A stretch of DNA of 64,000 bases from Bacteroidetes bacterium UKL13-3 (GTDB taxonomy: Bacteria; Bacteroidota; Bacteroidia; UKL13-3). The notes under the pieces are model-generated. The model saw only the letters and a program-made list of their open reading frames with translations. It was not told where the DNA came from and did no database searches. Shown one piece after another: positions 43,611-56,236 of the stretch. A program made the position numbers and the translations under genes. Within the stretch, counting starts at the first letter, position 1, and the number at the start of each line of letters is the position of its first letter. The stretch lies in assembly GCA_001602415.1 (NCBI GenBank), contig CP012155.1:2938824-3002823 (forward strand). The letters are read 5' to 3'.

Positions 43611-46600
43611 TTATCGAATCAATGTGATTGATCCTGTTTTGGATTTATCCGATTGACCTCTCAATTGGTAATCGCAAATGTAGTAGTATACTCCTGCAGG
43701 ACATTCAGAGCCTGTATTGTCGGTCTTACCATTCCACATAATCTTAGGATCACCGCTCTCGAACACTTTACCACCCCAACGGTTGTAAATGGTTAACTTA
43801 AATTTCTGAACCCCTTCTGTGCGCACTTTAAACTCATCATTTGTACCATCCCCGTTTGGCGTAAATACATTTGGAATTTCAAAGTCGATATTGAAGGTAT
43901 TCTTGATTTTGATACACGTATCTACAAAACATCCTTCGCTTTCGTTTAATCCTTTAGCAAAGGCTCTTAAGCAAATCTCAAAGGTTCCGGTATCGTTATC
44001 CAAATCAAAGCTGTAATTACGATCTTGATTGGTTCCGTTATAGGTAAACTTAGGAGCTGATGCACCATCCTTTGTTACAGTCCAAACATAGCTAACGTTA
44101 ATTGTAGTATCAGAATTGTTAATTAAGCTCACCTTTGGCATTGGCTGTTTTAAGGTGTCAATGCTAAACAACGGTGCAGGATAAACAACATTTATACTCA
44201 ACGTATCTGGAATTCTACAATTAGCCGCTGCTGATGGTGAGAAGGTATCTGGATTGAGAATGCCTGGTCTGGCAATAACAATATACTTACCTACCTCAGT
44301 GAATGTTTTAGGGAACGTATAATCTGACTGTTGGTTTTTATAAATCGAATCGGTTTTTACTGTATCATTCAAGTACGACACATAGCTGTATGACAATACT
44401 AGCTTATCCGACTTATTGGTAATTTGAACAGGTTTATCCTTACAAATCACATTCTTATCAACCAATACTTCATGCTTAATCTTCTTGATGGTAATTCGAA
44501 TTTGAGCTTGATCCGGTGTATCTGGATATGCAACTAAAGCACACTTATTCGGACTACCAAAGGCTCCATCGGAACCAACGGCAAAGATGCTGAACGTTCC
44601 AGTATCGTTATAAATATACTCCAACGTATCTCTTCTGCCAAAAACAGTTGTTTGGGTTGCATTACCCCAATCAAAATAAGTTGTTAGTGTTGGCGTATTG
44701 TTCGGGTTTGTATTACCATTTCTATCTATAAACTTACCGAGTGAGTCGGCCATATTTACCAATTTAACCCTAAACGGAGCACAACCAATGGTATCTCCCG
44801 GATTCAATAATCTGAATGCTGGACGTGGTCCACGAATAAACACTGTATCATATGTTGTATCCTTACATCCTAAATAGCTTTCCGAAACTAGTTTAACTCT
44901 AAACAAACCATTGGTTCGATATGGCCAGGTTGGCTTAAAGTTATTAAACGATTGCCATTGAATGGTATCAAATTTATTCTCACCAAACCACCAGTAATTT
45001 GTTTTTACACTATCAATGGCTTTACCAGCACCTATTTTCATGCTTGATGAATCGATGAACGTTGCAAATTCACCACAATTGAAAATGTTCTTAGGAAAAC
45101 CACCTCCATCTTTTAAGTAACCGATTTTAGCAACTGGTTTTGAAATACTCACATATCTATAGCAGGTATCAAAACGGCCTAAACTATCTTTAGATAACAT
45201 CGTGATTCTGTAGCGTCCGTATGTTGAGTATCTGTGCACTGGTCTCATTGATGAATCAATTGGTGTTCCATCTCCAAAATCCCAGTATACTCTCTCAGGA
45301 ACTATTGTATCAATTACAAATCTTCCTTGGTATGGTATAAATGGAACAATGTTTTGAATAGGACGAGGATCACCCACGTCTTGTCTCCAAAAATCAGCAC
45401 TGTCAATTTGCAAATCATCAAAAGGAAAACCTAAAGTTCCTGCAAATGCAGCACTTTGGGTTACCGCAGGTACGAAAGGCAATTCTGTAACCCGACAATC
45501 GAAACGGAAGTACCTCAATGAATCAACAAACTTTATAGGCTCGTTTTCGCAATACATGGTATCTTTTTGGTCTTGGGAGTTTAAAATATCAAATGTATCA
45601 ACAATACCAATGGTTACTGGCCTTGCAAAGGTTTGTGTACAGCCTCGTTTACTACCAATTAAGTGGATAATATTACCTGTACGCGAGCCTGGCAGTTTAC
45701 GAGCAACTTCCCAACTTGTTCTCTTAAATGTATGTTTTATTGGCAAGAACATCAATGCCGTATCAATAATTTGACTAGGCGGGAAGTAACTGATCGTGTC
45801 AAAGTTGTTTAATGTATCACGTTTACCCGAACATTTGTCTACCACTATAATTTTTCCTGGAATAGCATTGCGATCAATAATGTTAAAGATACGATAAAAG
45901 TTTGTTGCCAATACTGTATCAACCTCAACTCCAGCGCGCAAGCCTCCTGTTTGTTGTAATGTTGTTCCGCCAATAGTGATTAAGTTATTCCATACATTCC
46001 ATGTTGAATCCCATCTTATAACTGATCCATTCGGAACCCCAATAATCGCATTATCGGTAATTTTATATTCACCATTCTTGGTTCCCGGAGGATTTGCTCT
46101 TGTAATAAGTGTTACTGGATTAAGAGAGTTTGTAAGTGTCCAAGCTGCCGCTGTACTATCAAAATAGTATCTAACGTAAGGACCACCTGGAGCCCTTATT
46201 GGCCAAACGGTTGAATCCATAACAACAGGCGTACCGCTGTAAAAATCAAGGTTATAACGCACGCGCCTTACGCCATTAATGTAAAAACCATTGTTGTAAT
46301 CAGCTATTGAATCAGCATAGTAGAACGAATCCACAGTTAAGGTATTATCTCCCCAATCCCAAACCGAATATTTAATATCATCCTGAACACTATCTTGATA
46401 ATGAACAGTGATATCTTCACCTTTATGTCTCAATTTGCAATTTCTTGGCTCAACATCAAAACGAGCAGTTAGGTTGTTAATGCGCAAGAAGCGGTGATAC
46501 CAAACAGTATCCGACATACATTTAGGGAACTTACAATCTGTATACTCAACATCAACTACTTCAACCAACAGCGGACCCACTAATTCAAATCGTCTATTTT

Positions 46601-49600
46601 TAATTTGGCTAAATGCGTACTGATAGTTTTGTGGAGCACCTGGTATTGGGCTATTTCCCGAATTGTATTTAACAGGTGAGGTAATAGCGTTGAAATAATT
46701 TTGGTAATAGGTTGGATCGTTCTGATATTGCTGCAACGGCACTGATTTAAGCACGGTGTCCTTACACCCACTGCCAATAACAATACCAACTGTTATCCAT
46801 CCTTGAGCTGTATCAGCTGGAGGCGGCACGTTTTGCGGAGCGTTTAATCCGTAGTGAAAAACAATTCTTGTTGATGCTGAACTTTGCCATGCACGCGGTG
46901 CCGGTGTAAAGTTTGGATTTGACCAAAATGCAGGCAATACTCGCCCTCCTGGTGTAGTAGAAGGAGTTCCAGGTATTGGCGTTGCCATATTACCCGTCCA
47001 CGACATAAATCCATCGAGCACGCATGGTGTATTATCTAAACGATCAGCTAACGAATCGAAGTTAAACAAGATGAATGTTTGTCCGCAATTAGGAACAACA
47101 CCAGGCAAGTTGCCAAAACCTGATAATTCAAAATTTACCACATTCGGATTAGCACCCGGGCATTCTCTGCCGGATTTACCCATTCCTCTTCCATCTGCTC
47201 TCGCTATTGGTAACTGTACCGAAGCTTCCATTTTACAGTCTACGGAATCAAATAAAGTAGAGTCCAAATCACCCATTCCTGCGGTAGTTTCGTTGTTAAA
47301 CGAATCTTGTAAATTCATGCGCACGGTTACACACCTTGAAATAGTTCGGATAAATGCATATTTATAGAATGTCATATTTCCGCCACCAGGAACTATATCA
47401 GTACCATTTATGGTGTAATTTTTATTCAACCATCTGTATGAAACAGATGTGCTTGGTTCAATTGTTCCGCTTTGTATGGTTGGATACTCTCCACGAGTGT
47501 TAATCAAGCTAGGCCTCCAAGGATCGGGTAAATTACGTAAATTAATTTGCTCACCTTTTTGGATGTCGCGACTGTTATTGGTTCCAAAATCGATGGTGTC
47601 AATGCGCACCCATAATCCGAATGGAGCAGGACCGGTACCTTGTGTTAACGACCATTCACCTGTTGTTGGTTTCAAAAATATAGGCTTGCCCCACCACATT
47701 GAATCTGCAGGGTGAATAGGTGTTAATCCTGCTCCGTTACCAAATCTTGTTGGATCCCATGGCATAAAATCATGCCCTGTTAAATACCATCTGTAAACGG
47801 TATCCCAATTCGGATAATGGTGTCGTGGTAAACTATCATATGAAAACTTACAATTCATTCTACCGCCATATACCTGCTTGTTGGCTATAAAATAATGGTC
47901 ACTGTTTAAGTACTGATCCATTGCACTTGTCCATGCTCTGAGGGTATCAACAATAACACCAAATGTTGCGTAAGCCGGTTTGTATACAGCATTGTTATAG
48001 CGTACCCATGTTTTACCATTATCGTAAGTTATAGAATCAAGATATCGTATGGCAAATGCTGAAGGGTTATTAGCATCGGCTAAATAAGGAGGGAATCCAG
48101 CTTTAGGCACCGAGAATGAAGTACATTGAGGAGCGAAGTTGTCGTCAAAATCCCATTTCCGATACATCTTACGCGATTTATAATGTTGCGCAGTATTTAC
48201 AAAATCTACAGTATCTGAAGGACCGCATTGGTTCTTTTGGTTTGGCTTAATTACAATGTCATTTTGTGGATCTTCAATTCGTGAAAAAGGACCCAGTATT
48301 CTTACACCGTAACCATATAAACCATAACCCGCAAACGTGTCATATTTTAATGGCGGAATGGGATTTTTTTGCTGGAGGTAAGTAAAGTTTAATGGTAATA
48401 AAATCGTATCACGCAATACACCGCCTGCTTTAAACAATAAGGTATCGTTACTAATGTAGTATAAAGGTCTTTCATGTTTTCCTTTGTATACATATAAGGT
48501 ATCGGAGCGATAGGGATTACCCGACATAATATATTTGCCCGTATAGGTTAGTGCATATAAGGAACCCTTACCATTAGGTCTTACAATGGTATCGGTAAAA
48601 AATACTGGGCGTGATTCCGCATCCAAAGTATCGTTGTTGGCATATATGTATTTATCAATATACTTATCACTGCGAAGTGTAACACCTGAGTAATACGTAA
48701 ATCTAACTGGGGTGGGGCATACATTACTAATAGTTAGTGAAACATTGTATGTACCAATACCACCCACAAAAGTATGGCAGGGTGTCCAGCTGTTAAGGTC
48801 AAAATTTAATTGTTGCGATTGTGGATCATTAAAATTCCACAAGAAGTCTCCTGTACCAGGAGAGGCAAAAGAAATAGGTGTTTGTTTGAAGCAAACTGAA
48901 GCGCTGTTTCCACTACCCAGACAAACAGAATCGCGCAAGCTAAAGTCGGTTGCTGATTTGGTTGTTACAATGTCAAATTCAAACACAATATTTTTAGGAA
49001 TTGCTTTAGGTGCATTTGCTGAAGTATAACGGATGCTATCAACACAACCCGTAAGATCCTTAACTGATAACAATGGCGAAAACTCTCCATTAATCAAAAA
49101 ATCATGTCCGATGGTATCATAAAAAGCAGTTTCATCCAAATCGAAAGGTGCTGTTGCTGTATATTTTGTTCCATCACCAAACTCCCATGTATAGCTTTGT
49201 AAATTAGCTAGAGGAACTGGTGTTTTGTTGGTAAACAAATAGTTTGAAATAAAGCAAGGCCCTTTACGCATTAACCAAGTAAACTCAGGTTTAATATTGG
49301 GCTTAATAACAATTGGTCGTTGTGGCGGCAAGAAAGTGTCCTTGCGACAACCCAGACTATCAATAGCTCTTAGGGTTACTGTAAAACTACTCGGAAAGGT
49401 ATAAGTGTGACATACCGATGTTGCATTGGTAACACTATCCACTCTAGCATCCCCGTATTCCCAAATGTATTGCACAATTGGTGAACTTGGGGCAGACGCA
49501 CGGGTTGTTAAATTGTTTAAACATGCATTATTGTTTTTGAAACACTGTGTATCATTTCCGTTAATCGCAAAGCTCGTATTCGGAAGATTATACACCGTAA

Positions 49601-49940
49601 TGGCTATTGTTGGGGATGTTACCCTGCTCAAATCACTCAGTCGGGCAACAACATATACATTGTGCACCCCTGGAGGAAAAATAACTGAAACCGATCGTTG
49701 AGTAGATTGATTAACGGTTGAATCCTTTCCAGTTGTTGTTCCTGGATGGTAAAATACGTAATCTGTAACAACAACACCATTAGGCAAACCCAATGGAGCG
49801 GTTACCTGAATAATGGTGTTATTCCCTTCACAAATAACAGCTGGTGCGTATGAAGCTGTTAATACTTGCGCTTGGGATAGGAATGATGATGCAACCAAAA
49901 GCAGAACAACATTGAGTGTTGTGTACAGTTTGTTGCGCAT
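43611..49940 (-). CDS. Giant T9SS type B surface protein (2109 aa)
   Basis: A very large exported protein built of PKD-like modules: WEFGDGTKY, WDFDDNFAP, WDWGDNTL, YWDFGDGTP and others occur along its length, with many Asp/Asn and Tyr residues. The signal peptide MRNKLYTTLNVVLLLVASSF-LSQA starts at 49940; the frame stays open 31 codons upstream to 50033, 4 bp after the preceding gene, so a longer N-terminus is possible. It ends in a type B domain: IPNVFTPNGDGTNDEF, IYNRWGGKVFESG, GSITLIR. It is third in the sigma operon. Likely a filament or adhesin; no enzyme motif. Confidence 0.88.
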   Translation of the reverse strand: MRNKLYTTLNVVLLLVASSFLSQAQVLTASYAPAVICEGNNTIIQVTAPLGLPNGVVVTDYVFYHPGTTTGKDSTVNQSTQRSVSVIFPPGVHNVYVVARLSDLSRVTSPTIAITVYNLPNTSFAINGNDTQCFKNNNACLNNLTTRASAPSSPIVQYIWEYGDARVDSVTNATSVCHTYTFPSSFTVTLRAIDSLGCRKDTFLPPQRPIVIKPNIKPEFTWLMRKGPCFISNYLFTNKTPVPLANLQSYTWEFGDGTKYTATAPFDLDETAFYDTIGHDFLINGEFSPLLSVKDLTGCVDSIRYTSANAPKAIPKNIVFEFDIVTTKSATDFSLRDSVCLGSGNSASVCFKQTPISFASPGTGDFLWNFNDPQSQQLNFDLNSWTPCHTFVGGIGTYNVSLTISNVCPTPVRFTYYSGVTLRSDKYIDKYIYANNDTLDAESRPVFFTDTIVRPNGKGSLYALTYTGKYIMSGNPYRSDTLYVYKGKHERPLYYISNDTLLFKAGGVLRDTILLPLNFTYLQQKNPIPPLKYDTFAGYGLYGYGVRILGPFSRIEDPQNDIVIKPNQKNQCGPSDTVDFVNTAQHYKSRKMYRKWDFDDNFAPQCTSFSVPKAGFPPYLADANNPSAFAIRYLDSITYDNGKTWVRYNNAVYKPAYATFGVIVDTLRAWTSAMDQYLNSDHYFIANKQVYGGRMNCKFSYDSLPRHHYPNWDTVYRWYLTGHDFMPWDPTRFGNGAGLTPIHPADSMWWGKPIFLKPTTGEWSLTQGTGPAPFGLWVRIDTIDFGTNNSRDIQKGEQINLRNLPDPWRPSLINTRGEYPTIQSGTIEPSTSVSYRWLNKNYTINGTDIVPGGGNMTFYKYAFIRTISRCVTVRMNLQDSFNNETTAGMGDLDSTLFDSVDCKMEASVQLPIARADGRGMGKSGRECPGANPNVVNFELSGFGNLPGVVPNCGQTFILFNFDSLADRLDNTPCVLDGFMSWTGNMATPIPGTPSTTPGGRVLPAFWSNPNFTPAPRAWQSSASTRIVFHYGLNAPQNVPPPADTAQGWITVGIVIGSGCKDTVLKSVPLQQYQNDPTYYQNYFNAITSPVKYNSGNSPIPGAPQNYQYAFSQIKNRRFELVGPLLVEVVDVEYTDCKFPKCMSDTVWYHRFLRINNLTARFDVEPRNCKLRHKGEDITVHYQDSVQDDIKYSVWDWGDNTLTVDSFYYADSIADYNNGFYINGVRRVRYNLDFYSGTPVVMDSTVWPIRAPGGPYVRYYFDSTAAAWTLTNSLNPVTLITRANPPGTKNGEYKITDNAIIGVPNGSVIRWDSTWNVWNNLITIGGTTLQQTGGLRAGVEVDTVLATNFYRIFNIIDRNAIPGKIIVVDKCSGKRDTLNNFDTISYFPPSQIIDTALMFLPIKHTFKRTSWEVARKLPGSRTGNIIHLIGSKRGCTQTFARPVTIGIVDTFDILNSQDQKDTMYCENEPIKFVDSLRYFRFDCRVTELPFVPAVTQSAAFAGTLGFPFDDLQIDSADFWRQDVGDPRPIQNIVPFIPYQGRFVIDTIVPERVYWDFGDGTPIDSSMRPVHRYSTYGRYRITMLSKDSLGRFDTCYRYVSISKPVAKIGYLKDGGGFPKNIFNCGEFATFIDSSSMKIGAGKAIDSVKTNYWWFGENKFDTIQWQSFNNFKPTWPYRTNGLFRVKLVSESYLGCKDTTYDTVFIRGPRPAFRLLNPGDTIGCAPFRVKLVNMADSLGKFIDRNGNTNPNNTPTLTTYFDWGNATQTTVFGRRDTLEYIYNDTGTFSIFAVGSDGAFGSPNKCALVAYPDTPDQAQIRITIKKIKHEVLVDKNVICKDKPVQITNKSDKLVLSYSYVSYLNDTVKTDSIYKNQQSDYTFPKTFTEVGKYIVIARPGILNPDTFSPSAAANCRIPDTLSINVVYPAPLFSIDTLKQPMPKVSLINNSDTTINVSYVWTVTKDGASAPKFTYNGTNQDRNYSFDLDNDTGTFEICLRAFAKGLNESEGCFVDTCIKIKNTFNIDFEIPNVFTPNGDGTNDEFKVRTEGVQKFKLTIYNRWGGKVFESGDPKIMWNGKTDNTGSECPAGVYYYICDYQLRGQSDKSKTGSITLIR

Positions 49941-50037
49941 GCTGCTATTACTTCCCCGAAGTTTTTTGGCAGCGTTCATTTGGGTAAAAAACATAGTCGC
50001 TAACATATATATATTATTTATCATTTTCAACATTTAA

Positions 50038-50964
50038 TTAAAGGAGAGCTACTTTTCCAATTTTTGTTTGCTCGGTTTGCATACCTTTTAACTGATACCT
50101 AAATATCATAAAATACGTTCCCGGAGTACACATTAATCCTGATTTATAGTCTCTTCCATCCCAGTTCAGGTTTTTGTCGTTACTTTCAAATACTTTGTTT
50201 CCATTCTTATCCATTATGGTTAAAAAGTAGGACTGTTCATTCTCAATAGGAATCACAAATCGGTCGTTTTTGCCATCTCCATTTGGCGTAATTACGGTTG
50301 GAATAAACAGTTCACTGTTTTCATTAGGGTGAGAATCTGTTGTTGGCTCTTCCCTTTCTTGGGTGGTTTCTTCGAGGTCTTCTGATATATGAGTTTCCTT
50401 TTTACCAATATCTTTGGTTGAAGAAACAACAGCGCTCGGAACAATTATTGGTTTTTCATCCGATTTTATTTCCGGCAATGGTTGTGCTTTGACTATCATT
50501 TCCGAAGCTGGTTTTTCATCCTGCAGCATCTCTATGTCGCCTCTTTTACTTTTCACAATTACCGTTTGGTTTGAAGGCATTTGCGAAGGAGCAGATGTGG
50601 ATTTAGCTTCACCCGAACCAGACTCAATTGGAGATTCGGTAACCGATAGCAACTCTTTCTGCTCGGCTTTAGATGATGAAACTGATTCACTATCCACTTG
50701 TGCTGATAACTCCTGTTTGTTTGAGTTTTCTTTTTCAGTTAACAACACATATCCTGTAACAACCGAGGCACCAATAGCTATCGTTGCAATTATTTTAACA
50801 ACCAAACTCGTGCCTTTTACCGCAGCAGTTATGCCTCCGGCAGCCTGAGTTGCTTGCGCTGCCTGAACACCTTGCTCAATACCCTGCCACACATTGGGGG
50901 CATCGGGAGCAAAGTCAACAAAGTTGTCCTTCAGCAATTTATCTATGTTATTCAAGTCACTCAT
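50038..50964 (-). CDS. Membrane anti-sigma-like protein with a T9SS-type CTD
   Basis: A 308-residue single-pass membrane protein, start overlapping the sigma factor stop by 4 bp. Residues 1-50 (IDKLLKDNFVDFAPDAP, then NVWQGIEQ) match the short cytoplasmic head of Bacteroidota anti-sigma-like proteins. A membrane helix covers about 53-75. A Ser/Glu/Pro-rich periplasmic linker runs to about 215. Residues 218-308 form a domain like the type B T9SS signal: FIPTVITPNGDGKNDRF, then VFESN and NWDGRDY. It departs from true cargo: NRWG reads DKNG, and the end is GKVALL with no terminal Arg. There is no cleavable signal peptide. Regulator role is inferred. Confidence 0.72.
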   Translation of the reverse strand: MSDLNNIDKLLKDNFVDFAPDAPNVWQGIEQGVQAAQATQAAGGITAAVKGTSLVVKIIATIAIGASVVTGYVLLTEKENSNKQELSAQVDSESVSSSKAEQKELLSVTESPIESGSGEAKSTSAPSQMPSNQTVIVKSKRGDIEMLQDEKPASEMIVKAQPLPEIKSDEKPIIVPSAVVSSTKDIGKKETHISEDLEETTQEREEPTTDSHPNENSELFIPTVITPNGDGKNDRFVIPIENEQSYFLTIMDKNGNKVFESNDKNLNWDGRDYKSGLMCTPGTYFMIFRYQLKGMQTEQTKIGKVALL

Positions 50965-51512
50965 TGGTTTGTGCCCGCTTTCTGTTTATTAATTATTGCT
51001 TGCTGAAGTAGCACCCTTGCTCTCGATAGTTGGGACTTTGATGTTCCCTCGTTTATCTGAAGCAATTCGGCAATTTCGGCATGCGAGTAGCCTTCTACAA
51101 TATATAAGTTCAATACATTTCGATAACCAGGCGCCATTCCCTGCATAATCTCCAGTATTTCTTTTCTGCTCATGTTTCCAATGGTATCATCTTGCTGAAC
51201 ATGGTTTGAAGCAGCAGCCACATCATCATGATACATATGGTTTTTATTAGAACGGTAGTATTCAAGTGCGGTATTTACAAAAATGCGTTTCATCCATCCT
51301 TCAAAACTTCCCTGAAACCCAAATTGCCCCATTTTGGTAAACACCTTTATGAAACCATCTTGCAAAATATCTTTGGCTTCATCGTATGTGTTACTGTATC
51401 TCAAGCAAATACCGAACATGGTTCGTGCGTATTTTTCGTACAACTTTTTTTGAGCCTTTCCATCGCCCTTCACACACGCTGCTACAAGTTCTTGCTCATT
51501 TAAGTTGGTCAC
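50961..51512 (-). CDS. ECF-family RNA polymerase sigma factor
   Basis: A 183-residue sigma-70 factor with only regions 2 and 4. Region 2: LYEKYARTMFGICLRYSNTYDEAKDILQD, then GSFEGWMKRIFVNTALEYYR. Region 4: YRNVLNLYIVEGYSHAEIAELLQI, and GTSKSQLSRARVLL as recognition helix. GTG start. First gene of a three-gene operon with the membrane CTD protein and the giant T9SS protein; it starts only 26 bp from the divergent 1565-residue gene. It probably controls surface or secretion genes, as ECF sigma factors linked to T9SS do in this phylum (inference). Confidence 0.93.
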   Translation of the reverse strand: MTNLNEQELVAACVKGDGKAQKKLYEKYARTMFGICLRYSNTYDEAKDILQDGFIKVFTKMGQFGFQGSFEGWMKRIFVNTALEYYRSNKNHMYHDDVAAASNHVQQDDTIGNMSRKEILEIMQGMAPGYRNVLNLYIVEGYSHAEIAELLQINEGTSKSQLSRARVLLQQAIINKQKAGTNQ

Positions 51513-51538
51513 GCTTTTACTATGAATTATGTTAACAG

Positions 51539-54500
51539 ATGAATTTAGATTCGCTAAGGTTGCAATGGTATCATTTTTTCTTAAAACTTTCTAAATGCGC
51601 TTCATTTGTGTGTTTTAAACCTTACTTTAGTGCCATATTCCTATTTGTGCGCTTGGTTAAATCCGTTCATATCACTTTCTACTATTTTTGGATTGTTGCC
51701 TTTTTTCAAACGGTAACAGCCGAAACGGTTCATCCTGCCACACCCTTTGCTTCACTGCAATTTATCGAAAACAAGGGACAATGGGATAATAAGGCAACAT
51801 TTATGGCTTCCGTTTCTGGTGGTCATTTATTTGTAGAGCCCAACGCACTCCATTTTATTTTTAAAAATGCTGATGATGTTGCTGCTGCCTTTAAACACCC
51901 GCGAGCATTTGAAGATAATTTTAAATCTTTTACCGTTCGCAGTCATGCATTGCGTATTGAGTTTGAGGGCAGTTTAGATAATCCAGGTACATACGGAGAA
52001 AATCCACAATCTGCCTATTACAACTACTTTTTAGGCAGTGATCCATTATACTGGAAAACGCAGGTAAAATCCTTTAGTGAAGTGCACTTTACGCAGCTGT
52101 ATGCAAACATTGGCGCGGCACTTTATTCGTCCGAAAACAACAACCTTAAATATGATTTGATTGTTTACCCTGGTGGTCGGGTTTCGGATATTGTATTGAA
52201 TTATAAAGGTCAGGAATCGATTGCTTTAAAAGATGACGGATTGCACATTAGTACTAGTGTGAACAGTTGGAAGGAAGAGCACCCATACGCTTATCAAATC
52301 ATCGATGGTGTTACCCATGAAATCCCTTGTTCATTTATATTAAAAGAAAATCGTGTTTCCTTTAACGTTGGAAATTACAATCCTTCATATGCCTTAATTA
52401 TTGATCCGCAACTCATCTTCTCAACCTATTCAGGCTCTAGCGTTGATAATTTTGGCCACTCATCTACCTACGATAAAGATGGTAATTTATATGCGGCAGG
52501 TATTGCTACCAGCCCAACCGATTTTGTAAACGGACGTTACCCAACAACACCTGGTGCGTTTCAACAAGTTTGGGGAGGTGGCGTAGGATCTTGGCCTCAA
52601 GCTGGTTTCCCTTGCGATATTACTATTAGCAAATATGTGCCCGATGGAAGTGCGCTCATTTATGCAACCTATTTGGGAGGTAACAAAAACGATTACCCAC
52701 ACAGTTTGGTTACCGATAAGTACAATAATCTTGTGGTTTTTGGAACTACACTTTCGGCTAACTACCCTGTTAAAACAGGATGTTACGATGTTTCGTTTAA
52801 CGATTCGTTTGATATTATCGTTACCAAACTTTCGGCTGATGGAATCCAACTCATCGGTTCAACGTATGTTGGAGGGAGTGGGGTAGATGGTATTAACGTT
52901 GCTGATTCGCTGCGCATGAATTACGCAGATGAGTTTAGAGGAGAAGTTATTATTGATAATGCTAATAATATTATTGTAGCAACTTCAACAAGTTCGGCCA
53001 ATTTTCCGGTAACTGCTGGGGTGGTTCAATCCATCAAAAATGGCAGGCAAGATGGTTGTATTTTCAAATTGGATAGTTCACTTAAAGTATTAAAATCATC
53101 AACTTTTATAGGTCAACCCAACAATGATGCATTATACTCTTTAGATGTAGATAATAGCGGAACCATTTATTTTGCAGGAGGAACACAAAGCCAAACGTTT
53201 AGCGTATCGCCCAATAGTCACCTTTCGTCATACAGAGGTGGTTTTAGTGATGGTTTTGTGGGGCGAGTTAACTCAACACTCAGCTCGCTGCAAAACTTTA
53301 GGTATTGGGGAAGTGCTGCTTATGATCAGGCGTATTTTATAAAACTCGACCCGGCTAATAATCCCGTGGTGTTTGGTCAGAATTACGACTCGGTTCCGGT
53401 AATTGGCAATGTATACTTAAACCGAAACAGTTCACTCTTTGTAACCAAGTTTAACCCCTCGTTGGATAGCATCATCTTTTCAACTATGATTGGCGATTCG
53501 ATTAAACGTAACGCATTACCACCAAGCGCGTTTATGGTTGATGAATGTGGTGTAGTTTATGGTTCGGTTTGGGGTGGAGCAACAAATAGTAATAGTCGTT
53601 TTGCTACCACACACCCAGCAGGGAGTTTCACCAGTACAACCATAAATATGCCTGTTACAGCCGATGCCTTGCAAAAAACAACAGATAACAGCGATTTTTA
53701 TTTATTTGCGCTTGATCAAAATGCTTCCTCCCTCTTGTATGGCTCATATTTAGGGGAATCGGGAGCAGCCGATCACGTGGATGGGGGAACTAGCAGGTTT
53801 GATAAAAAAGGTGTTATCTATCAATCAGTTTGTGCCAGTTGTAATAGAGGAACATCAGGATCGTTTCCCACCTCAGCTGGGTCTTACTCGCAAGCAAATA
53901 AAAGCCCAAGGTGCAGCAATGCCAGCTATAAACTTGATTTTAGGAAAAGCAATGTGGTATATGCCTCGTTTAATTTTGCTCCCAAAAAATTCTGTCTCGA
54001 CTCGTATATTGTTGTTAACTATACCAATACCTCCTTTAATGGAAAATACCATCATTGGTATGTAAATGGCGTGTTGCGCGATACCTCGCTCAATTACAAA
54101 GATACTATTCGCACAGCCGGAACATACACCATCAAACTGGTAGAAATAGACTCGTCACGTTGCAGCATTTCGGATAGTAGCACTCAATCATTTACAACAA
54201 GCATTTCGGCCAAAGCTTCTTTTACTGTTACCAAGGATAGTTGCTCGCCATCTTATACATTTACCAACACGTCAACGCCATTCTCTATTCCGTTTAGATG
54301 GTATTTTGGAAACGGAGATACTTCTGGTGTAAACTTGGTAAAGAAAACATTTCCGGCAAACGGCAACTATCAGGTAATGCTGCTAACCAACCCCGGTTCG
54401 AGTTGCGTTGATACGGCTTTATACAACCTTATTTACGATTCATTAGACCATCTTGTCAAAGCATCCTTTTATCCGCTCGATAGTTTTAGTTGTGAACCCG

Positions 54501-56236
54501 CAGGCTTTACGTTTATCAATACCAGCAATAAGTTTAGCAACCTAAAATGGTTTATTAACGATACTTTGGTTGGGACAAAATTTGTGCTCGATACCTTTTT
54601 TTATAAGGGAAAGTATCGGGTAAAACTTGTTTCCAGCGACTCTGCTTCATGCAATAAAATTGACAGCAGCACACGACTGATTACTGTTGTTCCGTTTGTT
54701 TATCCCGATTTCACCTACGTACAAGATACTTGCTCGTATACCATTGCATTTAAAAATACCTCTATTCGTTTGCCTGAGGATACCGTTTCCTTTTTATGGA
54801 AATTTCCACCGGCATTCAGCTCAACCCAAAGCGATGCCTCATTTAAGTTTGATACAGCTGGAAAATATATTGTAACGCTGATTGCCAATCCGGGTTTACC
54901 TTGCGCCATGACCACCGGAAAAGAAGTAACAGTGAATTCACTGCCTGGTGTATTGAATGCCTTTTTTACTCCACAACCCCAACAAAGTTGTACTCCGGCA
55001 ATTATTACTTTTACCAATCTTTCAACCAATCAGCAATCACAGGAATGGTATTTTAATGATGCTCTTAAATCAACATCGCTCAACATTACCGATACATTTT
55101 ATAAAGACACCATCATTAGGGTAAAACTCAAAGTATTTAGTAACGCTACTTGTTCACCCATTGATAGTTTTGATACAACCATTACCATCATTAACAATAC
55201 GCGTAGTAAGTTTTCGTTCATTCGCGATACATGTTCGGCTAATATCATCCTTAAAAATGAATCGAGTGCCGATAACAACCAACCCCTAACCTACAAATGG
55301 TATTTTGGCGATGGCGATTCGTCAACGGCAGAAAGCCCCAAACATCTTTATAAAAAAGACAGCACATACACCATACAATTGATTACCAACCCGGGAAGCT
55401 TTTGTGCTGATACCAGCGAACAACTAGTAACCTATCAGTTTACCGAACATTTGCTCCAAACTTCCTTCGCCTTAACCGATACTGTTTTTTGTTCTCCGGC
55501 AATAATTAATACCACAAACACTTCGTTTAACGGGCAATTATACCGCTGGTACGTAAATGGAACTCCGGTGAGTACCAAGATTAATTACATGGATACGTTT
55601 ATTGCACCTGGAAACTACCGCCTTACCTTAATTGCCTTGAACGATGCATCGTGCAACAAACAAGATAGCATGGTGCGAAATATTACAGTTTATCAATCGG
55701 GCACTCCTGATTTTTTAGTTACACGCGATAGTTGTTCCTTAGTTGTTCAGTTTAAAAATCAATCTGTTTCACCAACAGGTTTTCCGCTTCCTTATATTTG
55801 GTATTTTGGTGATGGCGATTCATCTACCGAGAAAAATCCAACCCACCAATACACAACAACCAAGTTGTACACCATTCAACTCATCACAAATGCGAATACG
55901 TTTTGTGTAGATACAGCTACGCAAACATTATATACTGAAGGAGATTCATCGCAAGAAGTGGTGGTTCCAAATGTGTTTACGCCCAACAATGATGGGATTA
56001 ACGACTGTTACCGAATTACAGGTATATCGCAAAAATGTGATGTGTTCAACATAAGTATTTACAACCGTTGGGGCGATCTGTATTATGAATCAACGAACCC
56101 AGCCGCCTGCTGGAACGGGAAAAATGAAGCCGGCATAAACGCTTCGGAAGGTGTGTACTATTATATTCTAAAAATAAAGAAGAAAGACCAGCCTCAATTG
56201 GAAAAACACGGCACCATCACACTTATTCGTGAATAA
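51539..56236 (+). CDS. T9SS type B protein with DUF7948, SBBP and alternating PKD-like modules
   Basis: A 1565-residue exported protein. After the N-terminus comes a DUF7948-like domain (FIENKGQWDNKATFMASVSG), then beta-propeller-like SBBP repeats with ATYLGG and STYVGGSG words. From about residue 815 four pairs of two PKD-like module types alternate, each with two Cys. The end is a type B domain: VPNVFTPNNDGINDCY, IYNRWGDLYYES, GTITLIRE. The first 58 residues are atypical; a TTG or GTG near 51647-51653 would give a normal signal peptide ending TVTAE. Probable surface adhesin. Confidence 0.85.
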   Translation: MNLDSLRLQWYHFFLKLSKCASFVCFKPYFSAIFLFVRLVKSVHITFYYFWIVAFFQTVTAETVHPATPFASLQFIENKGQWDNKATFMASVSGGHLFVEPNALHFIFKNADDVAAAFKHPRAFEDNFKSFTVRSHALRIEFEGSLDNPGTYGENPQSAYYNYFLGSDPLYWKTQVKSFSEVHFTQLYANIGAALYSSENNNLKYDLIVYPGGRVSDIVLNYKGQESIALKDDGLHISTSVNSWKEEHPYAYQIIDGVTHEIPCSFILKENRVSFNVGNYNPSYALIIDPQLIFSTYSGSSVDNFGHSSTYDKDGNLYAAGIATSPTDFVNGRYPTTPGAFQQVWGGGVGSWPQAGFPCDITISKYVPDGSALIYATYLGGNKNDYPHSLVTDKYNNLVVFGTTLSANYPVKTGCYDVSFNDSFDIIVTKLSADGIQLIGSTYVGGSGVDGINVADSLRMNYADEFRGEVIIDNANNIIVATSTSSANFPVTAGVVQSIKNGRQDGCIFKLDSSLKVLKSSTFIGQPNNDALYSLDVDNSGTIYFAGGTQSQTFSVSPNSHLSSYRGGFSDGFVGRVNSTLSSLQNFRYWGSAAYDQAYFIKLDPANNPVVFGQNYDSVPVIGNVYLNRNSSLFVTKFNPSLDSIIFSTMIGDSIKRNALPPSAFMVDECGVVYGSVWGGATNSNSRFATTHPAGSFTSTTINMPVTADALQKTTDNSDFYLFALDQNASSLLYGSYLGESGAADHVDGGTSRFDKKGVIYQSVCASCNRGTSGSFPTSAGSYSQANKSPRCSNASYKLDFRKSNVVYASFNFAPKKFCLDSYIVVNYTNTSFNGKYHHWYVNGVLRDTSLNYKDTIRTAGTYTIKLVEIDSSRCSISDSSTQSFTTSISAKASFTVTKDSCSPSYTFTNTSTPFSIPFRWYFGNGDTSGVNLVKKTFPANGNYQVMLLTNPGSSCVDTALYNLIYDSLDHLVKASFYPLDSFSCEPAGFTFINTSNKFSNLKWFINDTLVGTKFVLDTFFYKGKYRVKLVSSDSASCNKIDSSTRLITVVPFVYPDFTYVQDTCSYTIAFKNTSIRLPEDTVSFLWKFPPAFSSTQSDASFKFDTAGKYIVTLIANPGLPCAMTTGKEVTVNSLPGVLNAFFTPQPQQSCTPAIITFTNLSTNQQSQEWYFNDALKSTSLNITDTFYKDTIIRVKLKVFSNATCSPIDSFDTTITIINNTRSKFSFIRDTCSANIILKNESSADNNQPLTYKWYFGDGDSSTAESPKHLYKKDSTYTIQLITNPGSFCADTSEQLVTYQFTEHLLQTSFALTDTVFCSPAIINTTNTSFNGQLYRWYVNGTPVSTKINYMDTFIAPGNYRLTLIALNDASCNKQDSMVRNITVYQSGTPDFLVTRDSCSLVVQFKNQSVSPTGFPLPYIWYFGDGDSSTEKNPTHQYTTTKLYTIQLITNANTFCVDTATQTLYTEGDSSQEVVVPNVFTPNNDGINDCYRITGISQKCDVFNISIYNRWGDLYYESTNPAACWNGKNEAGINASEGVYYYILKIKKKDQPQLEKHGTITLIRE

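What the first reader, a model, noticed from the sequence alone, without database searches (positions are those of the whole stretch)
50038..51512. ECF sigma factor with a membrane partner that mimics T9SS cargo
The gene overlapping the sigma factor by 4 bp encodes an anti-sigma-like cytoplasmic head, one membrane helix and a periplasmic linker ending in a 91-residue domain related to the type B T9SS signal. It lacks a signal peptide, its NRWG reads DKNG, and it lacks the final Arg, so it may be recognised by the secretion machine but not released. A saturated or idle T9SS could then change its hold on the sigma factor. The next gene in the operon is a giant true cargo, so the circuit would be closed. 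This is an inference from architecture; I know no described system that matches it exactly.
Basis: partly seen in the sequence, partly recalled or inferred. Interest (0 to 1): 0.85.

Follow-up and report, generated by a model that had tools for sequence, protein, structure and literature searches.

The report
Anti-sigma factor wearing secretion signal
A bacterial gene switch (a sigma factor) is paired with a membrane protein whose outer end is a modified copy of the tag that normally sends proteins out through the type IX secretion machine, and the next gene makes a giant protein carrying the real tag; the trio is conserved across many Bacteroidia, so these cells may read the state of their secretion machine to decide how much cargo to make.

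Summary
An ECF sigma gene overlaps by 4 bp a 308-aa protein made of a short head, one TM helix, a disordered tether and a well-folded type B T9SS domain (CTD). A 2140-aa type B cargo follows. It is not a one-off: sigma/CTD-partner pairs occur in 13 families of the class, and the adjacent cargo is conserved in the window's order and in many loci outside it. The head is homologous to heads of sigma-linked proteins that end in an outer-membrane beta-barrel (Dma architecture), which supports anti-sigma function. The CTD's closest solved relative is a T9SS substrate CTD bound in the translocon. RWG is present in 0/61 partners versus 43/45 cargos, so loss of NRWG is a family trait; loss of the final Arg is local. 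A conserved promoter, TTGCAACC-N16-CATC, precedes the sigma gene and an unlinked DUF1573 gene. Best reading: a Dma-like anti-sigma factor whose outer sensor is a T9SS-docking domain, controlling expression of its giant cargo. Binding, sensing and direction are inferred. New variant of a known kind.

The parts
50961..51512 (-). ECF sigma factor gene (183 aa, GTG start)
   Evidence: Pfam Sigma70_r2 48 bits, Sigma70_r4_2 55 bits; 46-69% identical orthologues across the order
50038..50964 (-). Membrane anti-sigma-like protein with type B T9SS CTD (308 aa); overlaps the sigma gene by 4 bp
50845..50964 (-). Cytoplasmic head, residues 1-40 (NIDxLLKxxxxxFxPxxPxxVWxxI)
   Evidence: D8, P23 and W26 invariant or nearly so; hhalign to heads of barrel-type partners 98.3%, E 1.5e-14; helices 4-14 and 23-42
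50737..50799 (-). Single TM helix, about residues 56-76
   Evidence: Kyte-Doolittle peak 2.0 at 58; helix 64-76 in model
50317..50736 (-). Periplasmic tether, about 140 residues, predicted disordered
   Evidence: pLDDT below 50; tether length 116-298 in all 61 homologues
50041..50316 (-). Type B T9SS CTD-like domain (CHU_C), residues 217-308
   Evidence: PF13585 60 bits; best PDB fold match 8glk_D, T9SS NucA substrate-bound complex, E 8e-4
50200..50211 (-). DKNG (residues 252-255) in place of the cargo motif NRWG, at a beta-hairpin turn
   Evidence: RWG 0/61 partners vs 43/45 cargos; in this genome the partner is the only clear CTD without an [RK]WG motif; turn between strands 243-251 and 257-261
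43611..50033 (-). Giant type B T9SS cargo (2140 aa, PKD repeats, C-terminal CTD with NRWG)
   Evidence: third gene of the conserved operon
51538..51564 (-). Conserved ECF-type promoter TGCAACC-N16-CATC (TTGCAACC with the next base), 26 bp upstream of the sigma GTG
   Evidence: only such site in the window; strict pattern upstream of sigma in 41/61 CTD-type loci vs 8/66 other loci; spacer of 16

Best explanation
The second gene encodes a membrane-anchored anti-sigma factor built on the Dma plan (sigma-binding head, one TM helix, long disordered tether, outer-membrane-facing C-domain), in which the C-domain is a type B T9SS CTD that has lost NRWG. The head holds the ECF sigma factor at the inner membrane (inferred from homology and operon). 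The CTD docks on the T9SS outer-membrane apparatus, most likely a PorP/SprF-like shuttle or the SprA translocon also used by the neighbouring giant cargo, but cannot be exported like cargo because it is tethered and altered (inferred). When the machine is free, engagement of the CTD pulls on or exposes the tether and sigma is released; when giant cargo saturates the machine, the CTD is outcompeted and sigma stays bound (the direction is a guess). Released sigma transcribes from TTGCAACC-N16-CATC its own operon, including the giant cargo, and a secreted DUF1573 protein, which closes a feedback loop. Shown here: architecture, homologies, conservation, promoter, linkage, motif loss. Inferred: sigma binding, docking, release and its sign.
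For: Head homologous to those of sigma-linked barrel proteins, which stand directly 3' of ECF genes. CTD folds confidently and its best PDB match is a T9SS substrate CTD in a translocon complex. Outside NRWG the partners keep the cargo pattern: key P, D, W and G at 100%, final L 77%. The adjacent cargo's CTD is the nearest CTD in the genome (43%, 80 bits; next 64 bits); similar CTDs can share one shuttle (PMC12618676). Only 3 PorP/SprF-like shuttles for about 19 other CTD proteins, none in the operon; SprA present. Order sigma-partner-cargo conserved in the order and in other families. Promoter at the sigma gene and at DUF1573 genes: 10/30 strict against a shuffled rate of 0.07%, 23/30 loose.
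Against: No biochemical or transcriptional data. Mutating any of five conserved motifs of the SprB CTD abolished its secretion (PMC12618676); if NRWG is one of these motifs (not verified, figure not held) the partner CTD might not be recognised at all. Partner and cargo CTDs show no pair-specific similarity beyond phylogeny across genomes (cognate ranks scattered). In several loci (L152, L156, L159, L161, L162, L226, L263) no CTD cargo was found directly downstream, so cargo coupling is not universal. Core T9SS gene sprA shows no such promoter in the stretch held.
Confidence: 0.5

Rival explanations
1. Trans-envelope surface sensor: T9SS does translocate the CTD, which is then held at the surface by a PorP/SprF-like protein while the TM stays in the inner membrane. 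The protein spans both membranes like Dma and senses surface or outer-membrane state, not T9SS traffic.
For: Tether of at least 116 residues in all 61 homologues could span the periplasm; type B CTDs are held at the surface by PorP/SprF in P. gingivalis and F. johnsoniae (PMC9143113); sister proteins carry an outer-membrane barrel; final Arg or Lys kept in most homologues.
Against: NRWG lost in 61/61, while export of a type B CTD needs its conserved motifs (PMC12618676).
Confidence: 0.25
2. The CTD is only a co-opted periplasmic Ig-like domain that binds another ligand, for instance nascent giant cargo or its PKD repeats, without engaging T9SS.
For: NRWG loss; several homologues also carry PKD domains before the CTD.
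Against: Other CTD signature positions stay cargo-like across 13 families; adjacent gene is a CTD cargo; best fold match is a T9SS substrate CTD.
Confidence: 0.15
3. Ordinary secreted cargo whose head and TM are an unusual, cleaved export signal; linkage to sigma reflects cargo regulation only.
For: CTD similarity to cargo.
Against: Head is homologous to heads of sigma-linked membrane proteins that have no CTD; no signal-peptide shape; RWG lost in all.
Confidence: 0.05

Closest known systems
[quoted passage not shown] PMC13088901)
   Same: Gene next to an ECF sigma factor; N-terminal sigma-binding domain, one TM helix, long disordered tether, C-terminal envelope domain. Sigma-linked partners with that plan and an OMP_b-brl_2 barrel have heads homologous to this one.
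   Different: C-domain is a type B T9SS CTD without NRWG, not a beta-barrel; operon contains a giant T9SS cargo. No direct sequence comparison with Dma1 itself was possible.
PorA / PorXY-SigP signalling in Porphyromonas gingivalis (PMC7712824)
   Same: A CTD protein feeds into an ECF sigma factor that controls T9SS-related genes.
   Different: PorA is a surface protein that acts through a two-component system; here the CTD is fused to a membrane protein encoded with the sigma factor.
FlgM / sigma28 flagellar checkpoint (from general knowledge)
   Same: An anti-sigma factor carries an export signal of the machine whose late cargo its sigma factor transcribes.
   Different: FlgM is soluble and secreted; here the protein is TM-anchored and the signal is altered, so engagement without release is expected.
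Type B CTD cargo with PorP/SprF shuttles (PMC9143113, PMC12618676)
   Same: CTD fold and most conserved positions.
   Different: No Sec signal peptide, RWG absent in all 61, sigma-linked.

Membership tests
Dma dual membrane-spanning anti-sigma | Encoded beside an ECF sigma gene | tested here: met
   4-bp overlap; all 20 fetched loci of the order
Dma dual membrane-spanning anti-sigma | Sigma factor of group ECF21 | not testable with these tools
   No ECF group models held; NCBIfam gives only general ECF matches
Dma dual membrane-spanning anti-sigma | N-terminal head homologous to those of barrel-type, sigma-linked partners | tested here: met
   hhalign 98.3%, E 1.5e-14, without the TM; Dma1 itself not at hand
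Dma dual membrane-spanning anti-sigma | One TM helix and long disordered tether | tested here: met
Dma dual membrane-spanning anti-sigma | C-terminal outer-membrane beta-barrel | tested here: not met
   CHU_C instead
Type B T9SS cargo | C-terminal TIGR04131/CHU_C domain | tested here: met
   PF13585 60 bits, over cut-off; TIGR04131 33.2 bits, under the 35 cut-off, in the protein scan and 36.2, over it, in the genome scan
Type B T9SS cargo | Sec signal peptide | tested here: not met
   Charged head of about 50 residues before the TM; no dedicated signal-peptide predictor was available
Type B T9SS cargo | NRWG motif | tested here: not met
   DKNG; RWG 0/61 partners vs 43/45 cargos
Anti-sigma factor (function) | Binds and inhibits its sigma factor | not testable with these tools
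   Needs binding and reporter assays
PorXY-SigP type circuit | Two-component system upstream of the ECF sigma | not tested
   porX/porY were not searched for in this genome

The most novel reading that the evidence does not exclude
A secretion checkpoint for type IX secretion: a tethered, non-releasable copy of the cargo signal competes with real cargo for the secretion machine, and the outcome sets the activity of the sigma factor that makes the cargo, a membrane-anchored counterpart of FlgM used by many Bacteroidia families.
Probability: 0.33. Interest if true: 0.9.

Novelty: new variant of a known kind. Interest (0 to 1): 0.74.

Why it matters
How Bacteroidota match production of very large T9SS adhesins to secretion capacity is, to my knowledge, open; known regulation (PorXY-SigP) does not show how machine state is sensed. 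A conserved anti-sigma factor that carries a modified T9SS signal, sits beside its sigma factor and a giant cargo, and has a recognisable promoter makes that question directly testable. It also extends Dma-type anti-sigma factors from a barrel to an exchangeable envelope sensor, with the C-domain (CTD, barrel or neither) varying on the sigma tree.

Tried and rejected
Missing final Arg as evidence for 'recognised but not released': rejected, most homologues keep a basic end. Pair-specific co-evolution of partner and cargo CTDs: no signal beyond phylogeny. Control of core T9SS genes: no such promoter in the held stretch around sprA, and genome-wide the loose pattern is near its control count (17 vs 10), with few intergenic sites. 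Shuttle gene in the operon: none; the three PorP/SprF-like genes lie more than 300 kb from the operon. Sequence search of PDB with the CTD: only a weak hit to the Aureispira grappling hook protein. The search for related loci with the partner alignment failed, so named loci came from the sigma alignment. Literature: no paper found in the held library describes a CTD-bearing anti-sigma factor; the 2024 Dma1 paper is not held.

Full report
WHAT IS THERE. The window is part of a complete 3.24 Mb genome. On the minus strand, 51512-50961 encodes an ECF sigma factor, 50964-50038 a 308-aa protein that overlaps it by 4 bp, and 50033-43611 a 2140-aa protein. The middle protein has a short charged head, one hydrophobic helix at about 56-76, a tether of about 140 residues and a C-terminal domain that matches CHU_C (PF13585) with 60 bits against a cut-off of 27. 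TIGR04131 scores 33.2 bits, just under its cut-off of 35, in the protein scan, and 36.2 in the genome scan. AlphaFold2 gives two head helices, a disordered tether (pLDDT below 50) and a C-domain with pLDDT of 94-98. Searched against the PDB by fold, the best match and the only one at E <= 0.001 is chain D of 8glk, the T9SS complex with bound NucA substrate. By sequence alone only a weak match to the Aureispira grappling hook protein is found.

IS IT MORE THAN ONE CASE. Full-length homologues occur in 51 of the 64 genomes of the order by profile, with partial matches in at least six more (my count from the table). In all 20 loci of the order that I fetched, the order is sigma, partner, large third gene on the same strand; complete cargos are 1510-2533 aa and end in a CTD, and in one locus the third gene is cut by the fetched stretch. 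In 296 genomes of the class further full-length matches appear outside the family. Fetched regions and 80 named sigma loci together with the window give 61 different CTD-bearing partners directly 3' of a sigma gene, in 13 families on the sigma tree. A complete CTD-bearing protein of 700-2533 aa follows in 45 of the 61. In a clade with several Flavobacteriales the cargo is often absent from the next position. Selection bias: these loci were chosen by similarity to the window protein or sigma, so frequencies do not estimate prevalence in the phylum.

WHAT THE HEAD IS. A profile of the head and TM finds the same head in other Bacteroidia in proteins directly 3' of ECF genes. Four of those tested end in an outer-membrane beta-barrel domain (OMP_b-brl_2). 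Profile comparison of heads without the TM, CTD type against barrel type, gives 98.3% probability, E 1.5e-14. The window genome itself has a second sigma with a partner that by eye looks barrel-ended (L063). This is the plan described for Dma1 and Dma2 of Bacteroides thetaiotaomicron, where the N-terminal domain is an anti-sigma domain and deletion of dma frees the sigma factor (PMC13088901). I could not compare directly with Dma1. Anti-sigma function is therefore an inference from homology, architecture and operon.

WHAT THE C-DOMAIN IS. Column by column, partners and cargos share the same signature: invariant P, D, W and G in the partners, G-x-Y, and a final L-x-R. One motif differs sharply: NRWG. 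RWG is present in 43 of 45 cargos and 0 of 61 partners. In the window genome all 19 other clear CTDs keep an [RK]WG motif, the partner alone does not; one further low-scoring hit, L021, is not a clear CTD. In the model DKNG forms a turn between two strands. In F. johnsoniae five conserved motifs of type B CTDs are each needed for secretion of SprB (PMC12618676). I infer that NRWG belongs to one of them, but the figure that defines the motifs was not available.

REGULATION. Directly upstream of sigma lies TTGCAACC-N16-CATC (51564-51538 without the first T). The spacer is 16 in nearly every site found close to a sigma start. The strict pattern is found upstream of 41 of 61 CTD-type sigmas and 8 of 66 others. 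The two other related sigma genes of this genome that I checked (L063, L064) lack it. Elsewhere in the genome one convincing intergenic site precedes a secreted DUF1573 protein (L277). Orthologues of that gene have the strict pattern in 10 of 30 and a looser form in 23 of 30, most at about 35-60 bp from the start; the shuffled rate for the strict form is 0.07%. In one genus a second conserved site precedes a small protein whose end looks by eye like a type A CTD. sprA is present but shows no such site in the stretch held. So the regulon looks small: the operon itself with its giant cargo, and DUF1573. That this sigma, and no other, uses the DUF1573 promoter is inferred.

LIKELY MECHANISM. Shared ancestry with sigma-linked membrane proteins points to sequestration of sigma at the inner membrane. 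The CTD points to T9SS. The adjacent cargo's CTD is the nearest relative of the partner's CTD in this genome (43% identity, 80 bits; next 64 bits), and in F. johnsoniae three CTDs with more than 44% identity to each other share one shuttle (PMC12618676). There are only three PorP/SprF-like shuttles for about 19 other CTD proteins, none in the operon, so shuttles are probably shared. A tethered, non-releasable CTD would compete with cargo for the machine, which would allow feedback on cargo synthesis. The sign is a guess: I favour engagement by a free machine leading to sigma release. The main rival is a Dma-like trans-envelope surface sensor in which the CTD does cross the outer membrane. Cross-genome comparison did not show pair-specific similarity of partner and cargo CTDs, which weakens, without excluding, direct competition.

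NOVELTY. No paper found in the held library describes a CTD-bearing anti-sigma factor; the library is incomplete. By plan it is a variant of Dma; by logic it could be a T9SS checkpoint like FlgM. On the sigma tree the CTD label needs at least four changes on well-supported branches, so the envelope domain has been exchanged or lost more than once.

Noticed in passing
G000:C1:1345095-1346307 (L277, L329), outside the window: DUF1573 secreted protein gene with the same ECF-type promoter as the sigma operon, found at 10/30 (strict) to 23/30 (loose) orthologues; its role is unknown.
   Followed up: partly
51539-56236 (+): Divergent 1565-aa type B cargo (DUF7948, PKD, CHU_C) beside the sigma operon. 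The ORF's first ATG abuts the sigma promoter; a GTG near 51647, before a signal-like stretch, is a likelier start. Several relatives also have a divergent CTD protein of about 935 aa here.
   Followed up: partly
L059, L164 and other partners of about 420-500 aa: Longer partners carry PKD domains between tether and CTD, as real cargos do.
   Followed up: partly
L242:5098-6288 and L063: Partners with repeated heads: three copies of the (RERFxGHE...W..I) unit in L242, two W..I units in L063, suggesting binding of more than one sigma molecule or avidity.
   Followed up: no
L292, L293, L299, L300, L317, L318: In one genus a second TTGCAACC-N16-CATC site precedes a 227-234 aa secreted protein; the one read in full (L292) has a type A CTD-like end.
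   Followed up: partly
G000:C1:2020403-2020618 (L009): Type B CTD match with an internal TGA stop, possibly a decayed cargo gene.
   Followed up: no
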